Translations under genes and position numbers: made by a program
Part shown: positions 2,133 to 50,285 of the stretch, one piece after another
Layout of the letters: every line of letters begins with the position of its first letter
How positions within the stretch are numbered: position 1 is the stretch's first letter
Origin: an uncultured Parabacteroides sp.
GTDB taxonomy: Bacteria; Bacteroidota; Bacteroidia; Bacteroidales; Tannerellaceae
Reading direction: 5' to 3'
DNA: 50,913 nucleotides
Assembly: GCA_949298575.1 (NCBI GenBank)
Contig: CASFXH010000017.1
Span: forward strand, 1-50,913
Notes under the pieces: generated by a model
Databases searched by the model: none
Seen by the model: the letters and a program-made list of their open reading frames with translations, nothing else
What the model was told of the DNA's origin: nothing

Positions 2133-2494
2133 TTTTGGCGCAACAGGACGATTTTTCCCCCATTACAAAATTGTTTTGACGCAACAGGACGATTTTTCCC
2201 CCATTACAAAATTGTTTTGGCGCTACAGAGCGATTTTTTCCCCATTGCAAAAGTGAAATGGCGCTCCTGAACGTTTTTTCCCCCATTACAAAATTGTTTT
2301 GGCGCTCCTGAACAATTTTTCCCCCATTGCAAAAGTGAAATGGCGCTTCCGGGCGATTTTTCCCCCATCGCAAAAGTGAAATGGCCCTCCTGAACGTTTT
2401 TTCCCCCATCGCAAAAGTGAAATGGCCCTCCTGAACGTTTTTTCCCCCATCGCAAAAGTGAAATGGCCCTCCTGAACGTTTTTTCCCCAAAACA
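2133..2494. repeat. Tandem array of 41-bp units, about 9 copies
   Basis: Units recur exactly every 41 bp (starts at 2133, 2174, 2215, 2256 and so on). Each carries TTTTTCCCCCAT followed by either ACAAAATTG or GCAAAAGTG. The next unit then begins TTTT or AAAT respectively, so the two half-types co-vary across the junction. Because 41 is not a multiple of 3, all three minus-strand frames cycle through the repeat and give spurious open frames. Downstream of the pseudogene and beyond the S46 peptidase terminator, so the array is intergenic. Confidence 0.95.
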
Positions 2495-2539
2495 AACACG
2501 CGGACCACGCCGGGAAGACGGCGCGTCCGCGTGTTTTTT
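2495..2539 (-). terminator. Terminator of the S46 peptidase gene
   Basis: Arms AACACGCGGAC (2495-2505) and GTCCGCGTGTT (2525-2535) enclose a second stem (CGCCG/CGGCG). A T-run follows on the plus side and a weaker one on the minus side, so it may act in both directions. It begins 32 nt past the peptidase stop. Confidence 0.8.
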
Positions 2540-2570
2540 CACGTTCTTTCCCTCAGCGGGAGGCGACGTT

Positions 2571-4715
2571 CTATTCCACCAACTTCAACTCCTCGAGCAA
2601 GCGCCCGCAGCGCCCCCACTTGTCGATGACGAAGAGGACGTAGCGGATGTCGACCGAGATGCTGCGTTGCAAGTCGGGCTCGAAGGCGATATCGCCACTC
2701 ATGGCCTCCCAGTTGCCGTCGAACGCGAGGCCGATCAGGCGGGCGTTCTTGTCGAAGACGGGGCTGCCGGAGTTACCGCCGGTGATGTCGTTGTTGGAGA
2801 GGAAACACAACTGGAGCTCGCCCTTGTCGTTGCCGTAGCGGCCGAAATCGCGCTGGCGGAGCAGGTCGAGGATCTCGGGCTGGACGGCGAACTCGGAGCT
2901 GGTGGAGTCTTCCTTCTCGAGGACGCCCTTGTCGGTCGAGTAGTAGTTGTACCACGCCGCGTCATAAGGACGGTAACCGCCGATCGAGCCATAGCTCATG
3001 CGCATCGTGAAGTTGGCGTTAGAGGGGAGCGCCTTTTCGGGATACATTTCCTTGAGGGCCTTGAAATAGAGACGTTCGCCCTGAAGGATGTCGAACTCGG
3101 CGTCGCCCATCTCCTGCGAGAGGCTGTAGAGGGCCAATGAAGTCGAGAGGGCCAACTCGGCGGCCGGGTCTTTCTTCAGCTTATCGTATTCCTTCGGGTT
3201 GTTGATCATCTTCTCGATGTTGGCCTCGGAGAGCAGGCGGGTTTTCTTGAAGACGTAGGCGGCGTATTTCTCGTAATCGCCCTTGTATTTCTTGTCGATC
3301 TTCTCGTAGATGTCGGGCAAGCGATCGGGGGCGACACGCTCCTTGACGATCTTCAGCATGGCGGCGAGGACTTTCTGGTCCAGCGTCGGCTCATAGTCCT
3401 TGAAGAAGGCGCGGACGCGGTCTTCCATGAAGATGGCTTTCTCCTCGGCGGTCGATTCCTCCACGTCGAACTGCTGCACCATGCGGGCCAAGCGGATGAT
3501 CTCCGCGCCGTTCGAGAAGGCTTCGGAGAGATACGTGCGGGTCTTCAACAAATCGTTGGTCGACGTATAGCCTTTCTCCAACAAGGAAAGGACCTCGCCA
3601 TACTCCGCTTTCCGGGCGGCGCTTTGGCTGACCCAATCGGCGAAAGTCTTCTCCTCGGCACGCTTGCGGTCGATCACGTTGAGGTTGGCCAAGCCACGGT
3701 TCATGCCGATCGAGTTTTTCCAATAGTTCGAGCTGCCGGCGTATTTGGAAGCGTATTTGATACGCACGGCGTCGCTGGCCGCCATGGCCTCGCTCCAGAG
3801 CGCTTGCTTGATGCCGCGGACCTCGATGCGAGGCTCGTTGGTCGACTTGATCCGTTGCTCCACGCCCCACGAGCACAAGTAGCGATCCGTGCTTCCGGGG
3901 AAGCCGATGGTCATCGCGTAGTCCTTGTCGGCGTAGCCTCGCAAAGAAACCTCGGCGACGTAGCGGGGTTTGTAGGGCTTGTTGGCCTTGTCGTACTCGG
4001 CGGGCTTGTTCTCGGCGTTGGCGTAGACGCGGAAGACGGAGAAGTCGCACGTCTGGCGCGGCCACATCCAGTTGTCCGTATCGCCACCGAACTTTCCGAG
4101 AGAGCTGGGCGGCGCGAAGACCATGCGGACATCGCGGAAGACATCATACGTCACCAGATAATACTTGTTATTGTTGTAGAACGGGACGACACGGGCCGAG
4201 AGGAAAGGATTGTCGTGGTCGATCGAGTCGCAAATGGCGTCACCGATGGAGTCGGCCGCCATCAAGCGCTTGTACTCATCTTGAAACTTCGCAATCTGGC
4301 TGTTGATGCGGTCGCTCACGTCGACCGTCTCCCGCAGGTAAAGCACGCTCAGGCCTTGTACCGGCAGTTCCTCGGCTTGGCTTTGCGAGACGAAGCCATC
4401 TTTCAAATAGTCATGCTCCACGCTACTGAGCTTCTGGATCGCGCCGTAGCCGCAGTGGTGGTTGGTGAAAATCAATCCCTCGTCGGATACGGTGATTCCC
4501 GAGCAACCGCCCCCGAAGATGACGACGGCGTTAGCCACGCAGGGCGCGTTCTCGTTATACAACAGGTCAGCCGACGGCTTGAAACCCAATTCCGCCATGC
4601 GGGCCAGGTTCTCCTTGTTCAATTCTTTCAGGATCCACATGCCTTCGTCGGCGTATGTGGATAACGTAGCGGCGCAAAGGAGCAACGCCGCGCTGATTCT
4701 TTTTTTCCAGTTCAT
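2571..4715 (-). CDS. S46 family dipeptidyl-peptidase (DPP7-like)
   Basis: Exported serine peptidase that removes dipeptides from the N-termini of peptides in the periplasm, a central activity in asaccharolytic Bacteroidales. The start at 4715 (MNWKKRISAALL) gives 714 residues, the usual family length, with a signal peptide ending near residue 22; longer readings upstream have no signal peptide. The catalytic His lies in FTNHHCGYG (about 86-87) and the Ser in GGNSGSPV (about 649). The residue in FDGNWEAMSGD near 667 is Gly. In this family Gly favours hydrophobic P1 residues (DPP7) and Arg favours acidic ones (DPP11), so DPP7-like is my inference. It is last in a minus-strand run, 31 nt after the flippase gene. 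Confidence 0.93.
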   Translation of the reverse strand: MNWKKRISAALLLCAATLSTYADEGMWILKELNKENLARMAELGFKPSADLLYNENAPCVANAVVIFGGGCSGITVSDEGLIFTNHHCGYGAIQKLSSVEHDYLKDGFVSQSQAEELPVQGLSVLYLRETVDVSDRINSQIAKFQDEYKRLMAADSIGDAICDSIDHDNPFLSARVVPFYNNNKYYLVTYDVFRDVRMVFAPPSSLGKFGGDTDNWMWPRQTCDFSVFRVYANAENKPAEYDKANKPYKPRYVAEVSLRGYADKDYAMTIGFPGSTDRYLCSWGVEQRIKSTNEPRIEVRGIKQALWSEAMAASDAVRIKYASKYAGSSNYWKNSIGMNRGLANLNVIDRKRAEEKTFADWVSQSAARKAEYGEVLSLLEKGYTSTNDLLKTRTYLSEAFSNGAEIIRLARMVQQFDVEESTAEEKAIFMEDRVRAFFKDYEPTLDQKVLAAMLKIVKERVAPDRLPDIYEKIDKKYKGDYEKYAAYVFKKTRLLSEANIEKMINNPKEYDKLKKDPAAELALSTSLALYSLSQEMGDAEFDILQGERLYFKALKEMYPEKALPSNANFTMRMSYGSIGGYRPYDAAWYNYYSTDKGVLEKEDSTSSEFAVQPEILDLLRQRDFGRYGNDKGELQLCFLSNNDITGGNSGSPVFDKNARLIGLAFDGNWEAMSGDIAFEPDLQRSISVDIRYVLFVIDKWGRCGRLLEELKLVE

Positions 4716-4746
4716 TAGCTTGTTTATATAAATGTTGATAGATTGT

Positions 4747-6249
4747 TTATTTCCGTTTGAAATACTTCCCCACGTAAGGCAATTCCCCAAGAGGCAAATC
4801 CCGCTTGACCAGGACGACGACATAAATCGCCAGCAGCGCTGTCCGATAAACCAAGCGTAGCGCCACGGAGCCGATCTCCACGCCCATTCCCGCGACGAAA
4901 AGCACCGCCGCCAGCCCCGCGTAAAGGAAAGCTGAACGCAGGTCGTAGTGAATCGGGAATTTCTTCTGCCCAATAAAATAAGAAAGCAGCATCATCACCA
5001 AGTTGCAGGCGAACGAGGCCCAAGCGCAAGCCATATAGCCATACCTCGGGGCGAACAATAGGATGATCAGTACCGTCGCCACGCAACCGATGGCCGAGAA
5101 ATAAGCGCCCCAATACGTCTGGTCGGTCAGCTTATACCACAAAGAAAGATTGAAATAAATCCCGAAAAACAACTCTCCCAGCATGACGATCGGTACCACC
5201 CGCAGCCCGGGATAGTAGGCCTCGCCGACGAAATATTTCAAGATGTCCAGATAGAAGGTGACGCCCAAGAAAATGAGTAAGGCGAGAAGGATGAAATATT
5301 TCATCGCCTCGGCATAGGCCACCGTGTTGTCGTCTTTCTTATAACGGGCGAAGATAAAAGGCTCGTAGGCATAGCGAAAAGCCTGGGTGAACATCACCAT
5401 CACCACCGCGATCTTGAAACATGCCCCATAAATTCCCAACTGCTCGTTGGCGTAGGCCTTATCCTCAAACAGGAAGGGGAAAAGGATCTTGTCGGCTGTC
5501 TGGTTGAAGATGCCCGCGATACCCAGCAAAAGGATTGGGAAAGAATAGGCCAGGATCTGTCGCAATGTCGCGATGTTCACCTTCGCCCGCAGCCCTGGCA
5601 AAAGGTCGGGCACGAGTAAAATCAATGTCAGCAAGGTGGTGAACACGTTCGCCACAAAGATATACCCCACGCCATAATCCGGCAAGAAGAACCAATCGAC
5701 CACGCCCGGCGCGTGTTGATGCAGCCACGGGCAAACGATCAGGAAGAAAATATTGAGAATGATATTGAGAAAGATATTGGCCAGCTTGATCCCCGCGAAA
5801 CGCCAAGCCTTACCCTGATAACGCAAGTACGCGAAAGGAATGCAACAAAAGGCGTCGACCGCCACGATTCCCGCCATCATCCCGACATACTCCGGATGGT
5901 CGCCATAACCCAATGCTCCGCTAATCGGCCCCAACGCCAAGAGCACCAACAGGGCGAACAACATCGAACTAGCCATCAGGCAATAGAGCACTGAGGCGTA
6001 GACCCGTTCCGGTTCCTGTTCTTCCTTCTTGTTGATAAAGCGGAAAAAACCCGTCTCCATGCCATAGGTCAAGATGATCAACAAAAGGGCTGTCCAGCCG
6101 TAAAGGTTGGTGACGATCCCATAGTCGCCCGTGTCCGTCAAGACCCGCGTATACATCGGGACCAACATCCAGTTCAGGAACCGGCCGACGATGCTGCTCA
6201 ATCCGTAGACGGCCGTCTCTTTCGCCAGCCTTTTCATTCCTCCTGCCAT
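4747..6249 (-). CDS. Polysaccharide flippase (MOP/PST superfamily)
   Basis: Inner-membrane protein of 500 residues with roughly 12-14 hydrophobic segments, beginning MAGGMKRLAKETAVYGLSS, the N-terminus typical of Bacteroidales Wzx-like/oligosaccharide flippases. Members of the MOP superfamily move lipid-linked glycans across the inner membrane; the substrate here is unknown. The first ATG (6249) is chosen because homologs share the MAGxLK start. The second ATG at 6237 has GGAGGA almost touching it, too close to be a good ribosome binding site. It lies between ruvB (37 nt upstream) and the S46 peptidase with no glycan-synthesis genes nearby, so it looks like a housekeeping envelope flippase rather than part of a capsule locus. 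Confidence 0.88.
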   Translation of the reverse strand: MAGGMKRLAKETAVYGLSSIVGRFLNWMLVPMYTRVLTDTGDYGIVTNLYGWTALLLIILTYGMETGFFRFINKKEEQEPERVYASVLYCLMASSMLFALLVLLALGPISGALGYGDHPEYVGMMAGIVAVDAFCCIPFAYLRYQGKAWRFAGIKLANIFLNIILNIFFLIVCPWLHQHAPGVVDWFFLPDYGVGYIFVANVFTTLLTLILLVPDLLPGLRAKVNIATLRQILAYSFPILLLGIAGIFNQTADKILFPFLFEDKAYANEQLGIYGACFKIAVVMVMFTQAFRYAYEPFIFARYKKDDNTVAYAEAMKYFILLALLIFLGVTFYLDILKYFVGEAYYPGLRVVPIVMLGELFFGIYFNLSLWYKLTDQTYWGAYFSAIGCVATVLIILLFAPRYGYMACAWASFACNLVMMLLSYFIGQKKFPIHYDLRSAFLYAGLAAVLFVAGMGVEIGSVALRLVYRTALLAIYVVVLVKRDLPLGELPYVGKYFKRK

Positions 6250-6286
6250 TTTCTTCTCTCTCTTTTTTTGTTTTAAATCAAGTCAC

Positions 6287-7315
6287 TCAAAACAGCGAAC
6301 CTTGTCGCTGGTCGTCGAACCGTGAGCGTCCCAGATGGGAATAGGCCAACTCTGTCGCCTCGCGCCCCCTTGGGGTCCTTTTCAAGAAACCTTCCTTGAT
6401 GAGGAAAGGCTCATAAACCTCCTCGAGCGTACCGGGATCCTCGCCCAACGCCGTCGCGATCGTGGTCAGTCCAACGGGACCACCCCGGAACTTGTCGATG
6501 ATGGTCGTCAAGATCTTGTTGTCGATCTGGTCCAATCCGTAACGGTCGATATTCAAGGCTTCCAATGCGTAACGGGCGATCCCCCTATCGATCTCGCCCG
6601 AACCTTTCACCTGGGCGAAATCGCGCACCCGGCGCAAGAGGGCATTGGCGATACGGGGTGTCCCACGACTCCGGGAGGCGATCTCATCGGCCGCGTCGGT
6701 CTGGCAACGGACCCGAAGAATCTCCGCGCTCCGGAGGACGATCTTCGCCAACGTATCGTTATCGTAATATTCCAAATGCATATTGATCCCGAAGCGGGCA
6801 CGCAACGGGCTTGTCAGCAAGCCACTCCGTGTGGTCGCGCCAATCAGCGTGAATGGCGCCAAGTCGATTTGGATCGAACGGGCGCTCGGTCCTTTGTCGA
6901 TCACGATATCAATTCGGTAATCCTCCATCGCCGAGTAAAGGTATTCCTCGACCACCGGGCTGAGCCGGTGAATCTCGTCGATAAAAAGGACGTCGTTTTT
7001 CTCCAGCGAGGTCAAGACCCCCGCCAAATCGCCTGGTTTGTCGAGCACCGGACCCGACGTAGCCTTGAATCCTACACCCAACTCATTGGCGATGATGTTG
7101 GAAAGGGTCGTCTTCCCCAATCCGGGAGGTCCATGCAAAAGGACGTGGTCGAGGGCCTCGTGCCGCATGCGTGCGGCCATGACAAAGATCCGGAGATTCT
7201 CCACCACTTTGGCTTGTCCACTGAAATCCCTGAAACTGAGAGGACGAAGTACGTTCTCGAATTCCCGCTCGCTTTCAGGAACGTGAGTGTCCCGTATATC
7301 AAAATCGTCTGTCAT
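6287..7315 (-). CDS. ruvB: Holliday junction branch migration helicase RuvB
   Basis: AAA+ motor of the RuvAB complex that drives branch migration of Holliday junctions in recombinational repair. The start at 7315 (MTDDFDIRD) gives 342 residues, the family length; the longer reading from 7357 would add 14 residues overlapping the promoter. Walker [10 protein letters not shown] is at 62-70, Walker B FIDEIH at 111-116, then the sensor GATTRSG, and the C-terminal winged helix ends near the C-terminus with TPRGR. It has its own TATCTTCGCG promoter just upstream and is followed after 37 nt by the flippase gene. ruvA and ruvC are not in the window. Confidence 0.97.
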
Positions 7316-8963: not shown

Positions 8964-9044
8964 AGTATTTTCCATATATACCTCCCCCAAGGACACGCGA
9001 AGCGAAGTCTCTTACGTTTCATCCTTTGGTGACATGGTTACCTG

Positions 9045-9225
9045 ACTTTGGTAACGTGATTACTTGACTTTGGTAACGTGATTACCTGACTTTGGTAACA
9101 TGATTACCTGACTTTGGTAACGTGATTACCTGACTTTGGTAACGTGATTACTTGACTTTGGTAACGTGGTTACCTGACTTTGGTAACGTGATTACCTGAC
9201 TTTGGTAATCTGATTACCAAATTAT
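9045..9225. repeat. Tandem array of 22-bp units, 8 copies
   Basis: ACTTTGGTAAC recurs every 22 bp. Each unit holds the dyad GGTAAC-n3-ATTACC, so the array reads as eight evenly spaced palindromes. It lies in the 450-bp gap between the M28 peptidase promoter and the DEAD-box helicase terminator. Confidence 0.95.
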
Positions 9226-15822: not shown

Positions 15823-15844
15823 CGTGCGGGGATATATTTCGCTC

Positions 15845-16078
15845 ACGGAATATATTCTCACGATTTTACAAGGATTAATTCCGTGCACGAAATATATTCT
15901 CACGATTTTATAAAGATTAATTCCGTGCACGGAATATATTCTCATGATTTTAGAAGGATTAATTCCGTGCACGGAATATATTCTCGCGATTTTAGAAGGA
16001 TTAATTCCGTGTACGGAATATATTCTCGCGATTTTACAAAAGTTAATTCCGTGCACGGAATATATTCTCGCGAAATAA
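15845..16078. repeat. Tandem array of 42-bp units with nested palindromes, 6 copies
   Basis: TATATTCTC recurs exactly every 42 bp (15851, 15893, 15935, 15977, 16019, 16061). Most units carry the perfect 16-bp palindrome ATTCCGTGCACGGAAT overlapping a second palindrome GAATATATTC. The array fills the convergent gap between the BlaR1 and FKBP gene terminators. Confidence 0.95.
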
Positions 16079-28061: not shown

Positions 28062-28249
28062 TACGCCGCTCCCCTTGCCCCTCGGGCGAGAAGCCGCTTG
28101 AGGAAGCGCGAAAAGAAGAGGCCGAATCCGCTCGCGTATCGGCAGGGAAATTCTATGGCGTGTGGAAAGACGAGGATTTCCCAGAGCTAAGCGCGGACGA
28201 GATGGCCGAGGCCATAAAGGCAAGTCGTCAATTCAAAAATGATCCTTGA
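28058..28249 (+). CDS. Small protein overlapping prfB, antitoxin-like C-terminus
   Basis: Protein of 63 residues whose ATG overlaps the prfB stop (ATGA), with a purine-rich GGGGGGAGGAGAA just before it acting as a good ribosome binding site. The C-terminal half, GKFYGVWKDEDFPELSADEMAEAIKASRQF with a charged Asp/Glu end, recalls the toxin-binding tails of VapB-like antitoxins (GxWKD...). The N-terminal half has no DNA-binding fold I recognise. No toxin gene follows, so it would be an orphan or remnant. The overlap implies translational coupling to prfB. Function unknown. Confidence 0.55.
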   Translation: MIRRSPCPSGEKPLEEARKEEAESARVSAGKFYGVWKDEDFPELSADEMAEAIKASRQFKNDP

Positions 28250-28297
28250 TGCTCCTTCCCTAGGATAAAAGCCTCAAACGCGATCTTTCTCCCCCTC

Positions 28298-28329
28298 CCA
28301 TGAGGGGGAGATGCCCGAAGGGCAGAGGG
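28298..28329 (-). repeat. Dispersed 32-bp element, copy 2 (inverted)
   Basis: Exact reverse complement of 281-312. It lies at the start of the non-coding stretch ahead of the 42-bp array and gene P1. Confidence 0.75.
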
Positions 28330-28380
28330 AGGCCAAAACTGGCGAAAAAAAATAAAGCCCCAACCCGTCGGAGAGGCGCG

Positions 28381-28556
28381 GACGCGACGTCCGGAGGGCT
28401 CGCACGCCGTATGAACCCCGCGGACGCGACGTCCGGAGGGCTTGCACGCCGTATGACCCCCGCGGACGCGACGTCCTGAGAGCTCGCACGCCCGCGACCC
28501 CCGCGGACGCGACGTCCTGAGAGCTCGCACGCCCGCGACCCCCGCGGACGCGACAA
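28381..28556. repeat. Tandem array of 41-42-bp units, about 4.5 copies, upstream of P1
   Basis: GACGCGAC starts at 28381, 28423, 28465, 28506 and 28547 (steps 42, 42, 41, 41). The first three units carry the dyad GGACG-CGA-CGTCC. The last two full units differ together from the first two in GAGAGCTCGCACGCCCGCG. The array ends 91 nt before the start of P1. Confidence 0.95.
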
Positions 28557-28614
28557 AAATTTCTTCTCCATCTACATTTTTTTTACTTTCTGTTTTGTTT
28601 TTAGAAAAAATGAT

Positions 28615-28622
28615 TACCTTTG
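28615..28622 (+). promoter_or_regulatory. -7 box TACCTTTG for P1
   Basis: Exact TAnnTTTG with a TTTG at 28594-28597 as a -33 candidate (17 nt spacing). Leader about 18 nt to the ATG at 28647. Confidence 0.7.
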
Positions 28623-28646
28623 GACCGGAAAAAAATTTCTATGAAT

Positions 28647-29552
28647 ATGGGAAAGTATAAGAAAATAGACAACGCGAATCTCGGGCAGTTGGACAACTCC
28701 GAGTACACCCGCTTCATGCAGCGCTTCTACGAGCTGGCTTTCCCCGCCCAGGAAAGCGGCGAGGAGCCCGACGACGGGGGCAGCCCCGGGACGGTCAGCC
28801 TCCTGCAAACCCGCGCGGCCGAGGGCAACCCTGAGCTGGGCATCAGCGCCGAGGAGCAAGAGGCTTTCGAGAAAGACCTGGCCCTGATGAGCGACCTGGT
28901 CGAGATCTCGCGTATCAAGAAGGAAACGAAAGAGTTGAAACCAGTCGACGAGCGCCGCGACGACGTGGTGACCTACTTCATCGCCTCCGTCCGCCAGCAA
29001 CAAAGCTCGCCGATCGCCGCCCAGAGCGACGCCGCGAAAGACCTCTACGAGGTCGTGAAACCCTACGAGGGCGTCTATCGCGAGGCCAACGAGGCGGAGA
29101 CGATCAAGATCGACGGCCTGCTGGCCGACGTCGCCAAGGAAGGCCTGCCCGAGCTGGTCGCCACGCTGGGCCTGACGGCCGTCGTCGCCGAGCTCCAGAG
29201 CTTGAACGACCAGTATAAGACGCTGAGCGCCGAGCGCCTCAAGACCGAGACGGCGATCCTCGAGAAAGAGTCGAGCGCCGAGATCCGCAAGCGGATGGAC
29301 GATCTGTACGACGACATGACGACGATCGCTTTCGTCCAAAGCGTCGCCAACCCGACCGAAGGGACGGCCGCGTTCGTCAGCCAGCTCAACACGCTGATCA
29401 AGAAGACGAAGGCCACCTACAAGGCCCGCCGGAGCCTCGAGTCGAAGGGGGACAAGAAGGAGGAGGGAGATTCTTCCACCACCACCCCCACCACTCCCCC
29501 GACGGAGACGGAGACGGAGACGACGCCTTCCGGGTCAGAGAATGGGAAATAG
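28647..29552 (+). CDS. Paralogous family protein P1 (DUF6261-like, uncertain)
   Basis: Soluble protein of 301 residues without signal peptide. I chose the ATG at 28647 because it gives MGKYKKIDN, matching MGRYKKIDD and MGKYKEIKK in the two paralogs (P2 and P3). All three share an N-terminal LxNxEYxxFM-like helix, an acidic turn PDDGGSPGTVSL (about 43-54), GNxELGIS, ExEAFE, DERRDD, SPIAA, VKPYxGIY, KIDGLL and TLGLT. Most of it should be alpha-helical. The tail (about 280-301) is Thr/Pro/Glu-rich. The layout recalls DUF6261 proteins of Bacteroidales, a family of unknown function; this match is from memory. A 42-bp array and a TACCTTTG promoter lie upstream, and GNRA hairpins follow. Confidence 0.85.
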   Translation: MGKYKKIDNANLGQLDNSEYTRFMQRFYELAFPAQESGEEPDDGGSPGTVSLLQTRAAEGNPELGISAEEQEAFEKDLALMSDLVEISRIKKETKELKPVDERRDDVVTYFIASVRQQQSSPIAAQSDAAKDLYEVVKPYEGVYREANEAETIKIDGLLADVAKEGLPELVATLGLTAVVAELQSLNDQYKTLSAERLKTETAILEKESSAEIRKRMDDLYDDMTTIAFVQSVANPTEGTAAFVSQLNTLIKKTKATYKARRSLESKGDKKEEGDSSTTTPTTPPTETETETTPSGSENGK

Positions 29553-29933: not shown

Positions 29934-30071
29934 TTAAGAATTTAAATAAATGGATGAAACAGACGCTCCCAAGAAAGGGAGAATAGCCCAAGGATTGTAT
30001 GGCAGAACAGAAAGAATCCCGCGGACCGCGCTTCTATTCCTGGAAGCGTCATGTTCCAAATTAACGCGCTC

Positions 30072-30252
30072 GGCAGGTCTTCTGGCTCTCTCCTGACTGG
30101 AAACCTTCCCATCCCAACGATTCAGGGGACAGTGGTCTAGACATTCCAGCCAACACACGCCTTTCGGCATGGGAGAATACAGCTGCAGGAACAGCTCCGG
30201 TCTCTCACCGGATTCCCTTTCACCGCCCCACGGACGCGGGGCGATTGCCTGA
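30072..30252 (-). ncRNA. Cobalamin (AdoCbl-type) riboswitch
   Basis: On the minus strand the conserved cores appear in order: GGTGAAAGGGAATCCGGTG, then GAGCTGTTCCTGCAGCTGTA, CCACTGTC, GGATGGGAAGG, AGTCAGGAG, and the B12 box AGCCAGAAGACCTGCC ending at 30072. A promoter box lies immediately upstream. These riboswitches shut off B12 uptake or synthesis genes when cobalamin is plentiful. No intact gene follows on this strand, only the remnant at 29745-29933 and then the convergent gene P1. Downstream hairpins (CGCTTC/GAAGCG, and CTCCC/GGGAG) could be parts of the expression platform. Confidence 0.93.
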
Positions 30253-30260
30253 ACACGGGG

Positions 30261-30268
30261 CAAAGGTA
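30261..30268 (-). promoter_or_regulatory. -7 box TACCTTTG for the cobalamin riboswitch
   Basis: Exact TAnnTTTG on the minus strand. The predicted start falls at about 30254, just where the riboswitch fold begins, so the RNA is probably still made. Confidence 0.7.
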
Positions 30269-40554: not shown

Positions 40555-41607
40555 CTAACGTCCTTTCTTATTCTCGGCCTCGGGCGTCGCGGGCGTTTCG
40601 CCCATGACGGGGCTGGCCGTCTGGGTGGAGGTCCACCCGCCGCTGACGGTCGAGACGGAAGCCTCGCGCGCCGCCGGCTCCTCGCTCTTCTGGGGCGTCG
40701 CGGCCTGAGGGGCGGCCTCGGCGCTTTTCGCCTTGGCCTTCGCTTCTTTCGCGGCGGCCTTCGCCGCTTTCCGGGCGCGCGTCTTGGTGGTCGCCTCCGT
40801 GCCTTCCTCCTTCTTCTTGGCGTTGGCGCGGTAGAGGCTGAGCCGCTGCTTGTTCTTCGCCTTCGTCTTCTCGATCAGGGTGTTGAGGCGCGAGACGAAA
40901 GTGGCCGTCGCGGCCGACGGGCTCAAGACGCTGGTCGCGAAGGCGACGGTCGTCATGTTCTCGTACACCTCGTCGAGCCGTGCCCTGACGGCGGCGCCCG
41001 ATTCGATGGCGTTGTCCGACTTGCGGTTCATCCGCGTCGTGGTCATGCTTTTGAAGGCCTCGTTCTCCTTCCGGAGCTCGTCGATGACGCTGGTGAGGCC
41101 CATCGTCTCGAGCATCTCGGGGAATCCTTCCTTCTCGGCGTCCATCAGCAGGCCGTCGATCTTGGAGGTTTTCTCCTCGACGGAGTCGCGCTGGATGCCG
41201 AAATAGGGTTTCATCACGTTGTAGACCTTGTTGGCCATCTCGCGGTGCGCGGCGATGGGCGACTTGCTTTGCGTCCTTACCGCCGTGTTGAGGTAGACGA
41301 TGAGGTCGTCGCGCCGGTCGTCGCTCTCCTTGAGCGGCTTCGTCTCCTCGCTGATGCGCGAGTACTCGACGAGGTCGACCATCAGGGTCAGTTCCTTCTC
41401 GAAGGCTTCCTTGTCTTCCTGGCTGATGCCCAGCTCGGGGTTCCCCTCGACGAGGCTGACGGTGCCCGGGCTGCCGCCGTCGTCGGGCTCCTCCTCGTCC
41501 TCGACGGCGGGGAAGAACAGCGGGTAGGCGGCCTGCATGAACGTCGCGTACTCGGCGTTGTTGAGCTTGCTCAGCGATGCGTCATCTATCTTCTTATAGC
41601 GTCCCAT
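40555..41607 (-). CDS. Paralogous family protein P2 with Lys/Ala-rich tail
   Basis: Second family member, 350 residues, starting MGRYKKIDDASLSKLNNAEY. The core (1-250) carries the same landmarks as P1: EEPDDGGSPGTVSL, GNPELGIS, EAFEKEL, DRRDDL, SPIAA, VMKPYFGI, KIDGLL and TMGLT. The tail (about 255-350) is different: strongly basic and Ala-rich (RKAAKAAAKEAKAKAK) like histone H1 or nucleoid proteins, then a Ser/Thr/Pro/Glu end. So the family keeps a core and changes low-complexity tails. A TATATTCGCG promoter is 23 nt upstream, then about 1 kb of repeats. It is on the opposite strand to P1 and P3. Confidence 0.85.
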   Translation of the reverse strand: MGRYKKIDDASLSKLNNAEYATFMQAAYPLFFPAVEDEEEPDDGGSPGTVSLVEGNPELGISQEDKEAFEKELTLMVDLVEYSRISEETKPLKESDDRRDDLIVYLNTAVRTQSKSPIAAHREMANKVYNVMKPYFGIQRDSVEEKTSKIDGLLMDAEKEGFPEMLETMGLTSVIDELRKENEAFKSMTTTRMNRKSDNAIESGAAVRARLDEVYENMTTVAFATSVLSPSAATATFVSRLNTLIEKTKAKNKQRLSLYRANAKKKEEGTEATTKTRARKAAKAAAKEAKAKAKSAEAAPQAATPQKSEEPAAREASVSTVSGGWTSTQTASPVMGETPATPEAENKKGR

Positions 41608-41631
41608 GATTTTTCTCATTTTTCTCAATCG

Positions 41632-41639
41632 CGAATATA
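41632..41639 (-). promoter_or_regulatory. -7 box TATATTCG (extended CGCG) for P2
   Basis: Exact TAnnTTCGCG on the minus strand, 23 nt before the ATG at 41607. Confidence 0.7.
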
Positions 41640-41839
41640 GAGGCATCTTCCATACCCTCCAAATTTTTTTGGGGGAAAATTATACTTTTTTTATGTTCCA
41701 AAATTAAGATCGTGGCTTGGTGGGTGGATGGTTCCCCCCTCTCCCCTGAAGCGCGTCAAAATCATTCCAAAAGCTCCCCTATGGCAGGGGAGCTGGATCG
41801 CCGAAGGCGAGACTGAGGGGTCCACCCTCTCAAGAAGCG

Positions 41840-42244
41840 CGTCAAAATCATTCTAAAAGCTCCCCCGCGAGGGGAGCTGGATCGCCGAAGGCGAGACTGA
41901 GGGGTCCATCACACAAAACCCATATCTTCACCCCTCACCCCTTCGGGGAGCTCCCCTAAGACAGGGGAGCTTTTTGGATAGTGGATCGGGGAACCCCTCA
42001 GGACAGGCGAGCTTTTTGGATAGTGGATCGGGGAACCCCTCAGGACAGGCAAACTTTTTAGATAGTAGAAGCCCCCTCTCCCCTAAAAAGCGTCAAAATC
42101 ATTCTAAAAGCTCCCCTGCTATAGGGGAGCTGGATCGCCGAAGGCGAGACTGAGGGGTCCATCACACAAAATCCATATCTTCACCCCTCACCCCTTCGGG
42201 GAGCTCCCCTAAGACAGGGGAGCTTTTTAGATAGTGGATCGGGG
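41840..42244. repeat. Two direct copies of a ~153-bp hairpin-rich element
   Basis: 41840-41992 and 42091-42244 are nearly identical, and a shorter third copy of the first part lies at about 41753-41822. Each contains CTCCCC...GGGGAG, GATCGCCGAAGGCGAGACTGA and CCCCTTCGGGGAG hairpins. The motif style matches the dispersed element at 281-312, so this is probably a local expansion of a REP-like family. Confidence 0.85.
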
Positions 42245-42430
42245 AGCTCCCCTAAGACAGGGGAGCTTTTTAGATAGTGGATCGGGGAACTCCTCAGGAC
42301 AGGGGAGCTTTTTAGATAGTGGTCCGGGGAACCCCTAAGACAGGGGAGCTTTTTAGATAGTGGTCCGGGGAACCCCTCAGGACAGGCGAGCTTTTTGGAT
42401 AGAAGGCTCGCTGACTGAGGGGCTCCCCTA
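41967..42430. repeat. Tandem units of 41-43 bp in two blocks, 8 copies
   Basis: GAGCTTTTT starts at 41967, 42009, 42051 (last degenerate) and again at 42220, 42263, 42305, 42346, 42388; steps are 42, 42 and 43, 42, 41, 42. Each unit reads GAGCTTTTTnGATAGTGG, then a GGGGA-CCCCT stem, then ACAGG. The first block follows the first 153-bp copy and the second block follows the second copy. Confidence 0.92.
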
Positions 42431-42465
42431 CCTTATATTATATATATCCCCCCAAAAACCCCTCG

Positions 42466-42648
42466 CCACGATGGCCAACGAGGTGAGCGCGGCGCGGAGT
42501 AGGTTGGCCACGGTGGCGAATGGGGTTGTCGCGGCGCTCACCTGGTTGGCCATGGTGGCGAACGAGGTTGACGCGGCGCGGAGTAGGTTGGCCACGGTGG
42601 CGAACGGGGTTGACGCGGCGCTCACCTGGTTGGCCATCGTGGCGAGGG
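42466..42648. repeat. Tandem array of 42-bp units with alternating halves, about 4.5 copies
   Basis: GGTTGGCCA starts at 42502, 42544, 42586 and 42628, exactly 42 bp apart. Units alternate between endings GCGCGGAGTA and GCGCTCACCT, giving an 84-bp higher-order repeat. The perfect dyad GCCAC-G-GTGGC occurs in every other unit. The array runs to within about 10 nt of the stop codon of the beta-propeller lipoprotein. Open frames across it on both strands are simply 14-codon repeats. Confidence 0.95.
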
Positions 42649-42657
42649 GGGGACGCG

Positions 42658-43746
42658 TCATTCCCATTCCAAAGTGACCTTATGGATAAAGAGGTCTTGA
42701 TCGTAATCGACCATGTAGACCACATGGTCGTCTTCCGTGGCGCAGCCAAAATACATCATCCAGCGCTCATCAGGGATCCGATAGCGGGCGATTAAATTCC
42801 CGTCCCAATCGTATTGCTCAAGGTAGCGGCCATCGCGATGGTCTCGCTCGTTTTCGGAGTGCTGGTGGATGGTATACACATAATTCTCGCCCCCGCCGCA
42901 GTCATAGTAATACATGGTGTTACTGGACGAACTGAGGGTGCGAAGCTGGGGATCGCCATATTGGATCATTTTCGCGTTTCGCCCATCCAGGTCGCTGAAG
43001 AAAATTTGATCAAAATAGAGGAACGCCCAAGCTAAGCGCTCTTTTTCCCTATTATACGCTAAATTCCCCAAATAGAAATAGCTACCCGCGCCGGGAGCGA
43101 AATGGAAGTGGGTTATGCCGCGCGCGGTCGTGTCCTTCAGATGGATTACGCCAACCCCTTCCCCTTCTCCGGAATCGAACAGGCATAAGAGGCTATCGGA
43201 TCCAAGGTGGAACATGCCATCGGAGCTCAATCGGACATTTGGTATCTCCGGCAGCTTCCCATAGGGCACGAGTTGGTAATCGGTTGAGATATAGAATAAC
43301 TTATTATCCCAAAATCTCCGGATGAGGAACAGCTTGTCCGGGTCCGTCGTCTCGATGACGCGGCAGTCGGTGAAGTCGTCCGGCCCGTCTCCCCATGGCG
43401 CGAGCTCGGCGAGCACCTGGTTGGTCTTTAAGGAAATCAAGTGCAGGAGGTAGGCGCCTCGCCGGAACTCCAGATGCTGCACGAGCAAGTAATCGCCTCG
43501 TTTAAACAAGCGCAATTCGCGGTGCTCGATGAGGAGGTCGATGGGCAGTTGCTCGATCGACTTGATTTTTCCTTTAGGGAACTCCGACTTCCGGCGCTTC
43601 TCGACCGCTCGCTCGGGGACTCGCGGGTAGGTGATGCCATTAAAAATCTCCGTCTGGAGGGGTTCCTCGCTCGCCGCGCCTCCTCGGCATCCCGCCAGGA
43701 GGACTAGCGCGAGCGCTAAGCTGAATAGAGAAATGGATTTACGCAT
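42658..43746 (-). CDS. Beta-propeller-like lipoprotein (BF3164/TolB-like)
   Basis: Lipoprotein of 362 residues with signal peptide and lipobox LLAGC (Cys about 20). The rest is beta-rich with repeated strand pairs such as LLVQHLEF, YLLHLISLKTNQVL, LFLIRRFWDNKLFYIS, and VYMVDYDQDLFIHKVTLE at the end. This matches the 6-bladed beta-propeller lipoproteins (BF3164 or TolB-like 6-blade families) that are abundant in Bacteroidales and lack a known catalytic role. Assignment is by pattern rather than a single motif. It has its own TATATTCGCG promoter and ends against a 42-bp repeat array. Confidence 0.75.
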   Translation of the reverse strand: MRKSISLFSLALALVLLAGCRGGAASEEPLQTEIFNGITYPRVPERAVEKRRKSEFPKGKIKSIEQLPIDLLIEHRELRLFKRGDYLLVQHLEFRRGAYLLHLISLKTNQVLAELAPWGDGPDDFTDCRVIETTDPDKLFLIRRFWDNKLFYISTDYQLVPYGKLPEIPNVRLSSDGMFHLGSDSLLCLFDSGEGEGVGVIHLKDTTARGITHFHFAPGAGSYFYLGNLAYNREKERLAWAFLYFDQIFFSDLDGRNAKMIQYGDPQLRTLSSSSNTMYYYDCGGGENYVYTIHQHSENERDHRDGRYLEQYDWDGNLIARYRIPDERWMMYFGCATEDDHVVYMVDYDQDLFIHKVTLEWE

Positions 43747-47298: not shown

Positions 47299-47332
47299 TT
47301 TTATATCTTTTTGCAATCTGTAAAAACCTGCG

Positions 47333-47340
47333 CGAATGTA
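47333..47340 (-). promoter_or_regulatory. -7 box TACATTCG (extended CGCG) for pnp
   Basis: Exact TAnnTTCGCG on the minus strand, 33 nt before the start at 47298. Confidence 0.7.
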
Positions 47341-47455
47341 GTGAAAGTTTGTGGGCTAAATGAATGAAACGAAAATAAATAACGGAGGGGATCCGTTTTT
47401 TTTGAAAAAAAGGAGGAAGAATGAAGGAAAGGTGATGGCGTATTGTGAAATAATG

Positions 47456-47463
47456 TATATTTG
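47456..47463 (+). promoter_or_regulatory. -7 box TATATTTG for the thioredoxin-like lipoprotein
   Basis: Exact TAnnTTTG, 32 nt before the ATG at 47496. Confidence 0.7.
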
Positions 47464-47495
47464 CACCCTCGAAACATTTTAATGTAAAGTAAAGA

Positions 47496-48689
47496 ATGAA
47501 ACAAACACGTACGAAATGGTGCTTCGCGGCGATGTGTCAGGCCGTGTGGATGATCTTGTTTCTCTCCGCTTGCGGGCAGAAAGATACGTTTACGGTCGAG
47601 GGAGTCGTGGCGGGCGCTAGCGAGCAGGTGATGTATCTGGAGAATGTAGGCGTCTCGTCGGTCGAGGTGCTGGACTCCGTGAAGTTGACCCCTGCCGGCA
47701 AGTTCGACTTTGAGGTGAAGCGGCCGGAATATCCGGATTTCTATCGGCTAAGATTGAATAATCAACTCATTAATTTCGCGATCGACTCGACGGAGACGCT
47801 TCGTTTCGCCGCCGACGCGAGCACTTTCGCGACTTCCTATACGGTGGAAGGCTCAGAGAACTGCAAGGCGATCAAGGAAATCACCTTGGCCCAGCTCGAC
47901 GCCAACCAGGCGATCCAGCGCCTTCGCCACGAGCATGAGGAAGGCGACTTGGCCGACTCGACCTACCAGCGGGAGGTCTTGGCCGCCTCAGAGTCCTATA
48001 AGGCGGTAGCCCGGAAATACATTTACTCCGCCCCGATGTCGACGGTCGCTTATTACGCCCTGTTCCAGCAGATTGATGGCTTGCTGTTTTTTGACTTGTA
48101 TGACAAGGAAGACTCGAAGGCTTATGGGGCCGTGGCGACGAGCTACGACCATCACTACCCGGAGAGCCCCCGTTCGCGCCATCTCTATAACCTGGCGCTG
48201 CAATCCATCAAGGTGATCCGGGCGCAACAGCAGCAACAAGACCAGCAAGGGAAAGCCTCGGCGATCACCGCCTTGGCCGACGGCGAGGTCGGGTATGTCG
48301 ACATCGTGCTGCCAGACTTGCGTGGCGAGCGCGTCAGCCTCTCGTCGGTCGCCCGCGGAAAGACGGTGATGGTGAACTTCACGGCCTACATGTCGGAGTG
48401 GTCGCCCGCGTTGAATATGGACTTCAGGGAATTGTACGATAAATACAAGAGCCGGGGATTCGAGATTTACCAGATCTCGTTGGACAGTGACTTGCATTTC
48501 TGGCGGAACGCGGCCTCCAATTTACCCTGGATCTGCGTGCGCGACCCGGAGACGGTCTACTCGCAAATCGCGGGCCTGTATAATGTCAAGCAATTGCCCG
48601 CCATCTTCATCTTGGACAAGGCCGGCAACCTGGTGAAGCGGATCGAGGACTTGAAAGAGTTGGATTCCTCCATCCGGGCGGCGCTGTAA
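47496..48689 (+). CDS. Thioredoxin-fold lipoprotein lacking the CxxC motif
   Basis: Lipoprotein of 397 residues: signal peptide and lipobox LFLSAC (Cys about 26), a DUF4369-like N-terminal domain (FTVEGVVAGASEQVMYLENV onward), a helical middle with a poly-Gln stretch near 244-252, then an AhpC/TSA or thioredoxin-like domain (VDIVLPDLRGERVSLSSVARGKTVMVNFTAYMSEWSPALN). Where active relatives have WCxPC, this one has EWSPA, so both Cys are missing and disulfide chemistry is unlikely. The cis-Pro loop QLPAIFILDKAG is intact. It may act as a binding or structural relative of the ResA/TlpA-type proteins. Confidence 0.85.
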   Translation: MKQTRTKWCFAAMCQAVWMILFLSACGQKDTFTVEGVVAGASEQVMYLENVGVSSVEVLDSVKLTPAGKFDFEVKRPEYPDFYRLRLNNQLINFAIDSTETLRFAADASTFATSYTVEGSENCKAIKEITLAQLDANQAIQRLRHEHEEGDLADSTYQREVLAASESYKAVARKYIYSAPMSTVAYYALFQQIDGLLFFDLYDKEDSKAYGAVATSYDHHYPESPRSRHLYNLALQSIKVIRAQQQQQDQQGKASAITALADGEVGYVDIVLPDLRGERVSLSSVARGKTVMVNFTAYMSEWSPALNMDFRELYDKYKSRGFEIYQISLDSDLHFWRNAASNLPWICVRDPETVYSQIAGLYNVKQLPAIFILDKAGNLVKRIEDLKELDSSIRAAL

Positions 48690-48778
48690 AAGAGGCGATC
48701 GGGAAGGCCCCTCGCGAGCGACGAGAGAGATATGTTGTAAAACAGGCCAAGAAGGGTGGCTTATTTAAAAAGATCACC

Positions 48779-48786
48779 TATCTTCG
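48779..48786 (+). promoter_or_regulatory. -7 box TATCTTCG (extended CGCG) upstream of greA
   Basis: Exact TAnnTTCGCG but 118 nt from the greA ATG, with a terminator-like hairpin in between; compare the 20-50 nt leaders elsewhere. Confidence 0.65.
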
Positions 48787-48792
48787 CGCTTA

Positions 48793-48843
48793 CATAACAG
48801 TTGGGAGTTCCAGCCAAACCATTTTGGTTGGGATTCTTTTTTT
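48793..48843 (+). ncRNA. Possible ~50-nt leader RNA or attenuator before greA
   Basis: A transcript from the TATCTTCGCG promoter would reach the hairpin CCAAACC/GGTTGG (48814-48820 with 48826-48831) and the T-run at 48836-48843 after about 50 nt. This could be a small RNA or premature termination controlling greA. No peptide is encoded. It may instead terminate transcription coming from the upstream lipoprotein gene. Confidence 0.4.
48814..48843 (+). terminator. Intrinsic terminator between the promoter and greA
   Basis: Hairpin with one bulged A and the loop ATTTT, followed by ATTCTTTTTTT. Confidence 0.65.
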
Positions 48844-48892
48844 ATTGCATCGTGAATAGTTGAAGTTTATAAATAATCATCTTTTTTTGAAT

Positions 48893-48899
48893 AGGAGGT
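48893..48899 (+). promoter_or_regulatory. Strong Shine-Dalgarno of greA (AGGAGGT)
   Basis: A full AGGAGGT placed 6 nt before the ATG. Most genes in this window lack any SD, so greA translation may be set unusually high. Confidence 0.8.
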
Positions 48900-48905
48900 A
48901 CGTTT

Positions 48906-49376
48906 ATGGCAGTCAGTTATATGACGAAAGAAGGCTATGATAAGATCTTGGCCGAAATCAATTATTTGGAGACCGTGAAGCGCCCGGAAATCTCGGCGCA
49001 GATCGCGGAGGCTCGCGACAAGGGCGACTTGTCGGAGAACGCGGAGTATGACGCGGCGAAAGAGGCGCAAGGAATCATGGAGGCCAAGTTGGCCCAATTG
49101 AAAAGCTTGATCTCGAACGCCCGCCTGATCGACGAGAGCCGGGTGAAGACCGACGAGGTGCAAATCCTCAACAAGGTCAAGATCAAGAACGTCAAGAACA
49201 ATATGGTCATGACCTATACGCTGGTCTCCGACTCGGAGGCGAACATCAAGGAGGGCAAGATCGCCATCAGCACGCCGATCGCCCAAGGACTTTTGGGCAA
49301 GAAGGTGGGCGACGTGGTCGACATCCGTGTCCCCTCAGGCATGATGACGTTCGAGATCCTCGACATTTCCATTTGA
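48906..49376 (+). CDS. greA: Transcription elongation factor GreA
   Basis: RNA polymerase cleavage factor of 156 residues that rescues backtracked complexes. The N-terminal coiled coil carries the acidic tip RDKGDLSENAEYDAAKEAQ (about 37-56), with Asp/Glu that hold the catalytic metal. The C-terminal FKBP-like domain ends IRVPSGMMTFEILDISI. The HIT-family gene follows after 45 nt. Confidence 0.96.
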   Translation: MAVSYMTKEGYDKILAEINYLETVKRPEISAQIAEARDKGDLSENAEYDAAKEAQGIMEAKLAQLKSLISNARLIDESRVKTDEVQILNKVKIKNVKNNMVMTYTLVSDSEANIKEGKIAISTPIAQGLLGKKVGDVVDIRVPSGMMTFEILDISI

Positions 49377-49421
49377 GAAAAAGTTTTTTGAGCGAACATA
49401 TATAATAATAAGGTAAAGCGT

Positions 49422-49817
49422 ATGGCAACATTATTTAGTCGGATCGTGGCGGGCGAGATCCCTTGCCACAAGGTCGCGGAAGATGAGGAATGCTTCGCGT
49501 TTTTGGATATCAACCCGGTCGCTGTCGGGCACACCTTGGTGATCCCGAAGCGCGAGGTGGATTATATTTTTGACTTGAGCGATGAGGAACTGGCGCGCCT
49601 CATGGCGTTCGCCAAGCGGGTGGCGCGGGCGCAAGAGGCGGCTATCGCGTGCAAGCGGGTCGGACTCGCCGTGATGGGACTGGAAGTCCCTCACGCGCAC
49701 ATCCATTTGATCCCGATCACGAAGGAGTCGGACATGTATTTTGGCGGGGAAAAGCTCAGCCTGTCGCAAGACGAGCTGGCCAAGATCGCCGAGAAAATCC
49801 GCGCGAAATTCGAATAA
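49422..49817 (+). CDS. HIT family nucleotide-binding protein
   Basis: Histidine-triad protein of 131 residues of the HINT branch: FSRIVAGEIPCHKVAEDEE start, VGHTLVIPKREVDYIFDL, and the triad HAHIHLIP near residue 93. HINT proteins hydrolyse purine nucleoside phosphoramidates. Probably co-transcribed with greA (45 nt gap, no promoter box between). Confidence 0.93.
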   Translation: MATLFSRIVAGEIPCHKVAEDEECFAFLDINPVAVGHTLVIPKREVDYIFDLSDEELARLMAFAKRVARAQEAAIACKRVGLAVMGLEVPHAHIHLIPITKESDMYFGGEKLSLSQDELAKIAEKIRAKFE

Positions 49818-49853
49818 TCGGGGTTTTCGTGCCGAAGTTTGGCGCGTAAAGGC

Positions 49854-49861
49854 TATATTTG
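49854..49861 (+). promoter_or_regulatory. -7 box TATATTTG without a following gene
   Basis: Exact TAnnTTTG, 37 nt past the HIT gene stop. The next gene on this strand starts at 50376 and has its own box. Confidence 0.55.
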
Positions 49862-49867
49862 CGTCAA

Positions 49868-49978
49868 TTAATACAGGGAGTGACTTATTTCATAAAAATT
49901 AATTAGTGGTTTTTACTCATAAGTTTGTTAACCTTAGAAGGAAGGGTCTGTCTGGGAAGATCGATCCTTTTTGTTTTT
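49868..49978 (+). ncRNA. Candidate small RNA, about 110 nt
   Basis: Between the TATATTTG box and a terminator-like hairpin (GAAGGGTC at 49941-49948 with GATCCTTT at 49963-49970, then TTGTTTTT) there is no reading frame of quality. A small RNA is the simplest explanation. Alternatively the hairpin just ends the greA-HIT operon. Confidence 0.4.
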
Positions 49979-50097
49979 CACCAACCCCGGTGGCGGCGAC
50001 GCGATTGCCGCGAACGGCCACCAACGCTTTCCATGGAATATAAGTTCTAAAGACGAGGCGCGCCGGACGGGGCGAAAAACGTCGAAAATGCCCGGCG

Positions 50098-50285
50098 ACC
50101 CCTCGCCGCACGACTTTAAACACTTTAAAGTAGCCAGGCGAACCTCGCCGCGCGACTTTAAACACTTTAAAGTAGCCAGGCGAACCTCGCCGCGCGACTT
50201 TAAACACTTTAAAGTAGTCAGGCGAACCTCGCCGCGCGACTTTAAACACTTTAAAGCGGTCAGGCGAACCTCGCCGCGCGTTTTC
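50098..50285. repeat. Tandem array of 42-bp units with two hairpins each, 4.5 copies, upstream of P3
   Basis: CGACTTTAAA starts at 50111, 50153, 50195 and 50237, exactly 42 bp apart. Each unit contains the perfect dyad ACTTTAAA-CAC-TTTAAAGT and a second dyad AGGCGA-acc-TCGCCG. The array ends 91 nt before the ATG of P3. Frames of 14-codon repeats run through it on both strands and are not genes. Confidence 0.95.

What the first reader, a model, noticed from the sequence alone, without database searches (positions are those of the whole stretch)
2133..50285. Seven unrelated intergenic tandem arrays, six with nearly the same period of 41-43 bp
Measured periods are 41 (2133-2494), 22 (9045-9225), 42 (15845-16078), 41-42 (28381-28556), 41-43 (41967-42430), 42 (42466-42648) and 42 (50098-50285). 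The sequences are unrelated, yet the spacing is held. Forty-two bp is four turns of B-DNA (4 x 10.5), and 22 bp is about two. Most units contain a perfect dyad. Arrays with equal period but private sequence suggest a common generating or selecting process, for example a protein or nucleoid structure requiring helical phasing, or a replication mechanism with a fixed step. A protein-coding origin is unlikely, as 41-bp steps break the frame.
Basis: partly seen in the sequence, partly recalled or inferred. Interest (0 to 1): 0.75.

Follow-up and report, generated by a model that had tools for sequence, protein, structure and literature searches.

The report
DUF6261 genes with private repeat arrays
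The odd 41-43-letter DNA repeats in this gut-bacterium window mostly belong to an unstudied gene family, each gene having in front of it its own repeat sequence but nearly the same repeat length, with array-only copies elsewhere in the genome, which points to a gene-plus-repeat module spread through many Bacteroidales.

Summary
The arrays are real and the period peak is sharp: in 841 kb sampled of a 3.05-Mb Parabacteroides-like genome, 52 of 54 strong arrays have period 40-43 or 22-24, or about double 41.

The 41-43 class belongs to a gene family. Three window array clusters lie just upstream of DUF6261 (PF19775) genes; the genome has 34 such genes. An array lies within 300 bp upstream of 12 of 14 DUF6261 genes versus 23 of 576 other genes (p=2e-14). 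The link holds in other Bacteroidales: 20 of 28 loci order-wide, 17 of 20 in named genomes (one locus in both sets).

Unit sequences are private; period and palindromes are kept. Arrays without a gene exist: 12 of 30 match an array beside a DUF6261 gene of the same genome, 0 of 30 match arrays of two other species.

The 22-bp array is a separate dispersed family resembling BrickBuilt.

Best reading: a two-part module, an all-helical DUF6261 protein plus a cognate array of palindromic DNA sites, with array-only copies. Linkage is shown; protein-array binding and purpose are inferred.

The parts
28377..28554 (+). 42-bp array x4.3, ending 86 bp before the start codon of the DUF6261 gene at 28641
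28594..28622 (+). promoter-like TTTG-N17-TACCTTTG between array and gene (Bacteroidetes-type consensus, recalled)
   Evidence: read; consensus not tested by experiment
28641..29552 (+). DUF6261 gene (PF19775, E 4.8e-40)
40555..41646 (-). DUF6261 gene (PF19775, E 4.9e-40); start codon uncertain
41748..41908 (-). 84-bp repeat x1.9, 102 bp upstream of the DUF6261 gene 40555-41646
41953..42066 (-). 42-bp array x2.7, same upstream region
42196..42402 (-). 42-bp array x4.9, same upstream region, unit holds a GGGGAGCTCCCC palindrome
42465..42645 (-). 42/84-bp array, about 820 bp from the DUF6261 gene and 37 bp or less from the end of the gene at 42658
50101..50280 (+). 42-bp array x4.3, 95 bp upstream of a DUF6261 gene; relative of an array at C9:42069-42257 of the same genome
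50376..50913 (+). DUF6261 gene, cut off by the contig end
2132..2488 (+). 41-bp orphan array x8.7 between two convergent genes; unit matches the array upstream of the DUF6261 gene at C56:18202-18654 (local score 60; best control 25)
15844..16073 (.). 42-bp orphan array x5.5 between two convergent genes; no cognate found among the 25 linked arrays in hand
9024..9218 (.). 22-bp array x8.9, member of a dispersed family with six more places in this genome; separate from the DUF6261 arrays

Best explanation
The 41-43-bp arrays are the DNA half of a two-part module. SHOWN: a DUF6261 gene is preceded on its own strand by 2-10 copies of a ~41.5-bp unit; unit sequence is nearly free between genes while period and palindromes are kept; array-only copies with the same unit lie elsewhere in the same genome at unrelated intergenic sites. 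INFERRED: the palindromes are double-stranded DNA sites for the DUF6261 protein (an all-helical protein, core predicted as a helical bundle), set about two and four helical turns apart so that many copies bind one face of the DNA; binding at the home array, which lies next to the gene's promoter, sets the gene's own expression, and orphan arrays are further docking sites produced by copying of the array. Unequal exchange or slippage between neighbouring palindromes would grow and shrink the arrays, so linkers drift and are replaced quickly while site geometry is kept. The 22-24-bp arrays are a different, BrickBuilt-like repeat family.
For: Array upstream in 79 of 105 DUF6261 genes of 21 genomes with >=300 bp upstream in hand, and downstream in 0 of 117 gene rows (rows include 2 double-counted in overlapping loci L303/L304); 20 of 28 order-wide loci and 17 of 20 named-genome loci, one locus shared; 12 of 14 against 23 of 576 other genes, p=2e-14. 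Dyads above shuffles, centres 20-21 apart in 29 of 79 against 8.6 expected; dyad arms vary less between copies than the rest, 162/2483 against 449/4723, 28 of 38 arrays, p=7e-4; linked arrays start or end at a dyad edge in 20 and 21 of 45 against 7.6 expected. No strand preference in RNA folding (mean -45.2 both ways, sense lower in 42 of 79) and G.T 12 against A.C 9 mismatches: symmetry at DNA level. Orphans match own-genome linked arrays in 12 of 30, controls 0 of 30, again 2 of 4 in G009. Orphan arrays: 36 in 1.08 Mb of genus genomes with >=9 DUF6261 genes, 0 in 0.79 Mb of those with fewer; without G000 6 in 242 kb, p=1.7e-4. Promoter-like sites flank arrays: 14 of 75 just before, 15 of 75 between array and gene, 0 inside, 2 of 75 in the 200-600 bp before (windows differ in size).
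Against: No binding was or could be tested. Unit sequences are unrelated once the proteins fall below about 65% identity (55-65%: 3 of 19 pairs above the 99th percentile of shuffles; >=65%: 6 of 7), so a sequence-reading protein would have to change specificity very fast. 26 of 105 genes lack an array by TRF, among them 7 of 7 from the low-copy genomes G004, G012, G013, G017, G020, G021, G023. 18 of 30 orphans had no match, 2 of 4 in G009, and the single orphans of G024 and G007 none. Orphan ends are not clearly at dyads (8 and 4 of 24 against 4). Genes beside matched orphans have no common theme, which speaks against a regulon. No DNA-binding fold was recognised; the model is weak (mean pLDDT 53.6, pTM 0.42) and its best structural matches are at the level of any helical bundle. 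One weak orphan-like array (two copies) sits in G026, which has one DUF6261 gene.
Confidence: 0.5

Rival explanations
1. REP/RAYT-like selfish or domesticated repeat system: the palindromes work as folded single-stranded hairpins, and DUF6261 (alone or with host enzymes) copies arrays to new intergenic sites; regulation is incidental.
For: Gene next to its own palindromic repeats plus array-only copies elsewhere limited to the repeat (10 of 12 pairs have no match outside the array, in the other two the extra matches are again to repeat copies); neighbours are assorted metabolic genes; sequence is free but complementarity kept; recent duplicate genes in G019 share DNA from 222 bp before the array to about 110 bp after the stop.
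Against: No Y1/HUH transposase domain in the two DUF6261 proteins scanned; the predicted confident part is all helical; no conserved GTAG-like tag was looked for or seen; REPtron genes are mostly single copy according to PMC8266576 (passages), here up to 52 per genome.
Confidence: 0.22
2. Type III toxin-antitoxin-like system: the array is transcribed into repeat RNA that holds the DUF6261 product in check.
For: Repeat array upstream of the gene, repeat length conserved while sequence diverges, fractional copy numbers, as described for ToxIN (36 nt x5.5, 34 x2.9, 35 x2.8; PMC5086642, passages).
Against: No strand preference in folding; promoter-like sites lie between array and gene at least as often as before the array (15 and 14 of 75); no terminator-like site between array and gene on the coding strand at the one locus scanned; no toxin family in PADLOC for 4 proteins or Pfam for 2; many arrays without a gene.
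Confidence: 0.07
3. Plain minisatellites: slippage or unequal exchange makes tandem repeats, and 41-43 is simply the favoured step in these genomes.
For: Arrays are tandem, vary in copy number, turn over quickly: of the genus loci with the dbpA 3' side in hand only G000 has the 22-bp array.
Against: Does not explain 12 of 14 against 23 of 576 genes, the absence of 41-43 arrays from 0.79 Mb of genus genomes with few DUF6261 genes, or the dyad excess.
Confidence: 0.1
4. A general nucleoid protein or DNA structure needs helical phasing, and arrays of any sequence serve it.
For: Mean period 41.5 is four turns of 10.4; dyad centres 20-21 apart.
Against: 22-24 does not fit the same pitch; no 31-32 or 52-53 class; arrays follow one gene family, not genomes in general.
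Confidence: 0.08

Closest known systems
REPtrons (TnpA-REP/RAYT transposase with cognate REP palindromes and BIMEs)
   Same: A gene sits beside its own palindromic repeats, and cognate repeats without the gene are spread in intergenic DNA; REPs can stand in tandem pairs.
   Different: DUF6261 shows no Y1/HUH domain by Pfam and is predicted all helical; dozens of gene-array pairs per genome, each with its own unit; direct repeats of fixed ~41-bp step.
MITE464/PgRS of Porphyromonas gingivalis (41-nt tandem repeats) and the '41, 23 and 22' nt repeats noted for strain W83
   Same: Same order, same period of 41; intergenic.
   Different: Reported as one MITE family with IS5-type terminal repeats (PMC4596501, section 7 part 1); no DUF6261 link is mentioned in the parts read; whether P. 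gingivalis has DUF6261 was not tested (0 in one Porphyromonas MAG).
BrickBuilt MITE of P. gingivalis (23-nt bricks with leader and tail)
   Same: Resembles the 22-bp class here: dispersed array family, unit dyad, partly shared flank.
   Different: Unit sequence (GGTAAT..ATTACC type); no terminal inverted repeats or target-site duplication were shown here.
Type III toxin-antitoxin systems (ToxIN, CptIN, TenpIN)
   Same: Private repeat array of nearly fixed repeat length just upstream of one gene.
   Different: No sign of RNA-strand structure, no toxin family match, arrays without a gene.

Membership tests
DUF6261 (PF19775) for the three window genes | Match to the Pfam model above its cut-off (27 bits) | tested here: met
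   137.4, 137.4 bits; 86.4 bits for the part held of the third gene
REPtron / RAYT | Y1-type HUH tyrosine transposase | tested here: not met
   Pfam scan of two DUF6261 proteins lists DUF6261 and a weak DUF269 only; structural search lists no conclusion on this
REPtron / RAYT | Cognate palindromic repeats beside the gene and dispersed in intergenic DNA | tested here: met
REPtron / RAYT | GTAG-type tetranucleotide next to the palindrome | not tested
   no search made
Type III toxin-antitoxin | Tandem repeat array directly upstream of the toxin gene | tested here: met
Type III toxin-antitoxin | Terminator between array and gene, single promoter before the array | tested here: inconclusive
   none on the coding strand at 28200-28700; promoter-like sites on either side in a minority of 75 loci
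Type III toxin-antitoxin | ToxN-like endoribonuclease toxin | tested here: inconclusive
   no toxin family in Pfam (2 proteins) or PADLOC (4 proteins); activity not testable
Type III toxin-antitoxin | Structured repeat RNA | tested here: inconclusive
   no strand preference in folding; transcription not testable
BrickBuilt-like MITE (22-bp class) | 22-24-bp tandem repeats at several intergenic places with shared unit | tested here: met
   six further places, 74-91% identity
BrickBuilt-like MITE (22-bp class) | Leader and tail with terminal inverted repeats | tested here: inconclusive
   partly shared flanks; terminal repeats not searched for
MITE464/PgRS (41-bp class) | IS5-type terminal inverted repeats around the array | not tested
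   orphan-to-linked homology stops with the repeats in 10 of 12 pairs, which leaves no shared terminal repeat there, but no search for the published termini was made

The most novel reading that the evidence does not exclude
An order-wide class of gene-plus-array elements in which a non-transposase, all-helical protein family (DUF6261) makes, keeps or reads DNA arrays by geometry rather than sequence: paired palindromes every ~20.8 bp in ~41.5-bp units, with sequence free to drift so fast that each of dozens of paralogues in one cell owns a private array and its own set of array-only copies. It would be a new principle of repeat recognition or repeat making, and it would account for the 41-bp repeat class noted in P. 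gingivalis if that species carries the gene.
Probability: 0.25. Interest if true: 0.92.

Novelty: new variant of a known kind. Interest (0 to 1): 0.77.

Why it matters
DUF6261 is nearly absent from the paper library searched (one paper holds the name, seen as a listing only), yet it reaches 34, 52 and 36 copies in single genomes, 15 in a Tannerella forsythia genome, and occurs in 45 of 392 sampled Bacteroidales genomes. Tying it to private DNA arrays gives the family a first testable role, turns an anonymous minisatellite class into a marker of one gene family, and offers many natural protein-array pairs for asking how a protein family and its DNA sites diverge together. It also separates two repeat classes (41-43 and 22-24) that looked like one phenomenon.
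Full report
OBSERVATION. All seven arrays are present at about the stated coordinates. The window is one whole contig (C17) of an 88-contig, 3,051,199-base genome. Its PNPase is 87-90% identical to that of several Parabacteroides genomes, so I call it Parabacteroides-like. I sampled 40 stretches plus the window, 841,145 bases or 27.6%. Of 54 arrays with TRF score >=150, 40 have period 40-43, 9 have 22-24, 3 have 81-84, and 2 have other periods. Four other genomes of the genus (G012, G015, G018, G020; 600 kb together) have no array at that score, and weak 21-24-bp arrays are the commonest kind there apart from 7-bp repeats in G012.

LINK TO DUF6261. Two complete window genes beside arrays match PF19775/DUF6261, and a third is cut off by the contig end. 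The genome has 34 DUF6261 genes scattered over its contigs; relatives in the genus have 0 to 52. Taking genes with at least 300 bp of upstream DNA in hand, an array of period 38-45 (or double or triple) lies upstream in 24 of 26 in G000, 22 of 28 in G009, 20 of 29 in G019 and 13 of 22 in the other genomes, 79 of 105 in all; no such array lies downstream in the 117 gene rows (upstream means anywhere in the stretch held, up to about 1.5 kb; the rows hold two genes twice because L303 and L304 overlap). Within the random-like sample of G000 and with a 300-bp limit, 12 of 14 DUF6261 genes against 23 of 576 other genes have one upstream (Fisher p=2e-14), and 0 of 14 against 33 of 576 downstream.

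BREADTH. DUF6261 is found in 45 of 392 Bacteroidales genomes, 29 of 204 genera. In 28 loci fetched from these, 20 have the array upstream; two have an array of such a period on the downstream side (L318 p87, L330 p41). In named genomes (Tannerella forsythia, other Tannerellaceae, Phocaeicola coprophilus, Mediterranea, Seramator thermalis, Barb4), 17 of 20 loci have it; two of these 20 hold under 250 bp upstream, and one locus is the same place as one of the 28. Of 16 genomes reached by name, 9 have DUF6261; a Porphyromonas MAG, three Bacteroides, a Ca. Symbiothrix, P. distasonis SIG124 and Ca. P. intestinavium have none. The period stays at 41-42 although the loci run from 30 to 55% G+C.

ANATOMY. 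In 79 units upstream of DUF6261 genes (42 bp: 43, 41: 28, 43: 4, 40: 4) the best dyad scores 6.27 against 4.15 in shuffled units and the second-best 4.52 against 3.21; their centres lie 20-21 bp apart in 29 of 79 against 8.6 expected. So a unit is often two palindromes about two helical turns apart. Dyad arms vary less between copies than the rest (6.5% against 9.5%; 28 of 38 arrays; p=7e-4). Linked arrays begin and end at a dyad edge more often than chance (20 and 21 of 45 against 7.6), orphans not clearly (8 and 4 of 24 against 4). RNA folding shows no strand preference and mismatches in near-perfect dyads are G.T 12, A.C 9, other 27, so I place the symmetry at the DNA level. Bacteroidetes-type promoter-like sites (consensus recalled) occur within 200 bp before the array in 14 of 75, between array and gene in 15 of 75, inside in 0, and in the 200-600 bp before in 2. 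Two genes of G000 without a TRF array (L209, L216) still show scattered copies of one palindrome upstream (seen by eye).

ORPHAN ARRAYS. The G000 sample holds 15 arrays linked to DUF6261 and 30 orphans (score >=120). Against 25 linked arrays of G000, 12 of 30 orphans score 40 or more; against 44 linked arrays of G009 and G019, 0 of 30. The window's 2132 array is one of the 12. In 10 of 12 pairs no match lies outside the repeats; in the other two the extra matches are again to repeat copies. In G009, 2 of 4 orphans match a linked array of that genome (117 and 106 against at most 41 for other genomes), two do not; single orphans of G024 and G007 do not, with one linked array each in hand. Among 19 genus genomes sampled, orphans number 36 in 1,083,416 bases where DUF6261 has nine or more copies and 0 in 788,742 where it has fewer; without G000, 6 in 242,271 (p=1.7e-4). 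Five of the nine high-copy genomes (G019, G005, G014, G010, G003) showed none in their small samples, and G026 of another family showed one two-copy array. Genes beside matched orphans are assorted (esterase, histidine phosphatase, EamA, GcpE, ferredoxin, RmlD, cytidylyltransferase and others).

SEQUENCE FREEDOM. Unit similarity is clear only for proteins at least 65% identical (6 of 7 pairs above the 99th percentile of shuffles) and drops to 3 of 19 at 55-65%, 6 of 89 at 45-55%, 13 of 193 at 35-45% and 32 of 987 below. Period and dyads outlive the sequence. This is what makes the case unusual and also the main weakness of a simple operator model.

PROTEIN. Structural matches are at helical-bundle level. 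No sequence relative among solved structures, no PADLOC or PHROGs family, no NCBIfam family above cut-off, no phage or viral-contig match, two P. distasonis plasmid records.

THE 22-BP CLASS. The 9024 array has relatives at six other places of the genome at 74-91% identity, with partly shared flanking sequence. The neighbours of ten such arrays are assorted genes. It resembles BrickBuilt of P. gingivalis. Klein et al. (PMC4596501: abstract, section 5 and part 1 of section 7 read) also report 41-nt repeats in MITE464/PgRS and cite 41-, 23- and 22-nt repeats for strain W83, so both period classes have been seen before in one species of the order, without a gene partner in the parts I read.

MECHANISM. 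I commit to a gene-plus-cognate-array module with DNA-level recognition at about even odds. Shown: linkage, orientation, geometry, cognate orphans, dose relation. Inferred: binding, autoregulation, copying of arrays. The nearest known logic is the REPtron (PMC8266576, passages), but the transposase that defines it is not there. Type III toxin-antitoxin (PMC5086642, passages) shares the layout but not the RNA signs.

NOVELTY. One paper of the library holds 'DUF6261' (listing only) and searches listed none on such arrays; papers outside that library were not searched. I rate it a new variant of a known kind (gene with cognate palindromic repeats), with a real chance of being more.

Noticed in passing
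window 30055-30268 (-): Cobalamin riboswitch (Rfam 73.3 bits) on the minus strand between two plus-strand genes by my rough gene calls, so the gene it would control is unclear.
   Followed up: no
L044 12440-12805: A 42-bp array before a DUF6261 gene in a Tannerellaceae MAG appears to read through as an open frame with a 14-residue repeat after a TACCTTTG promoter-like site; read by eye only.
   Followed up: no
L032 12304-12536, L396 2738-2889, L044 12491-12760: The 3' side of PNPase carries a 41/42-bp array in three genomes, of different unit sequence, as if it were a favoured site.
   Followed up: partly
window 41780-42160: Three exact copies of a GGGGAGCTG...CTGAGGGG palindromic stretch beside the arrays; found nowhere else in the 441 loci held.
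   Followed up: partly
L009, L019, L021, L023, L027, L028 (23-bp arrays): Several 23-bp arrays share a GGCATTATAA-like core, another dispersed family of the 22-24 class; seen by eye in TRF units.
   Followed up: no
L293 and L294 (G019): Two nearly identical DUF6261 genes (98% protein) share about 1.65 kb including the array: a recent duplication whose ends could show how the module moves.
   Followed up: partly
L303/L304 (G019:C7): Two DUF6261 matches facing each other within 1.4 kb, one with two stop codons.
   Followed up: no
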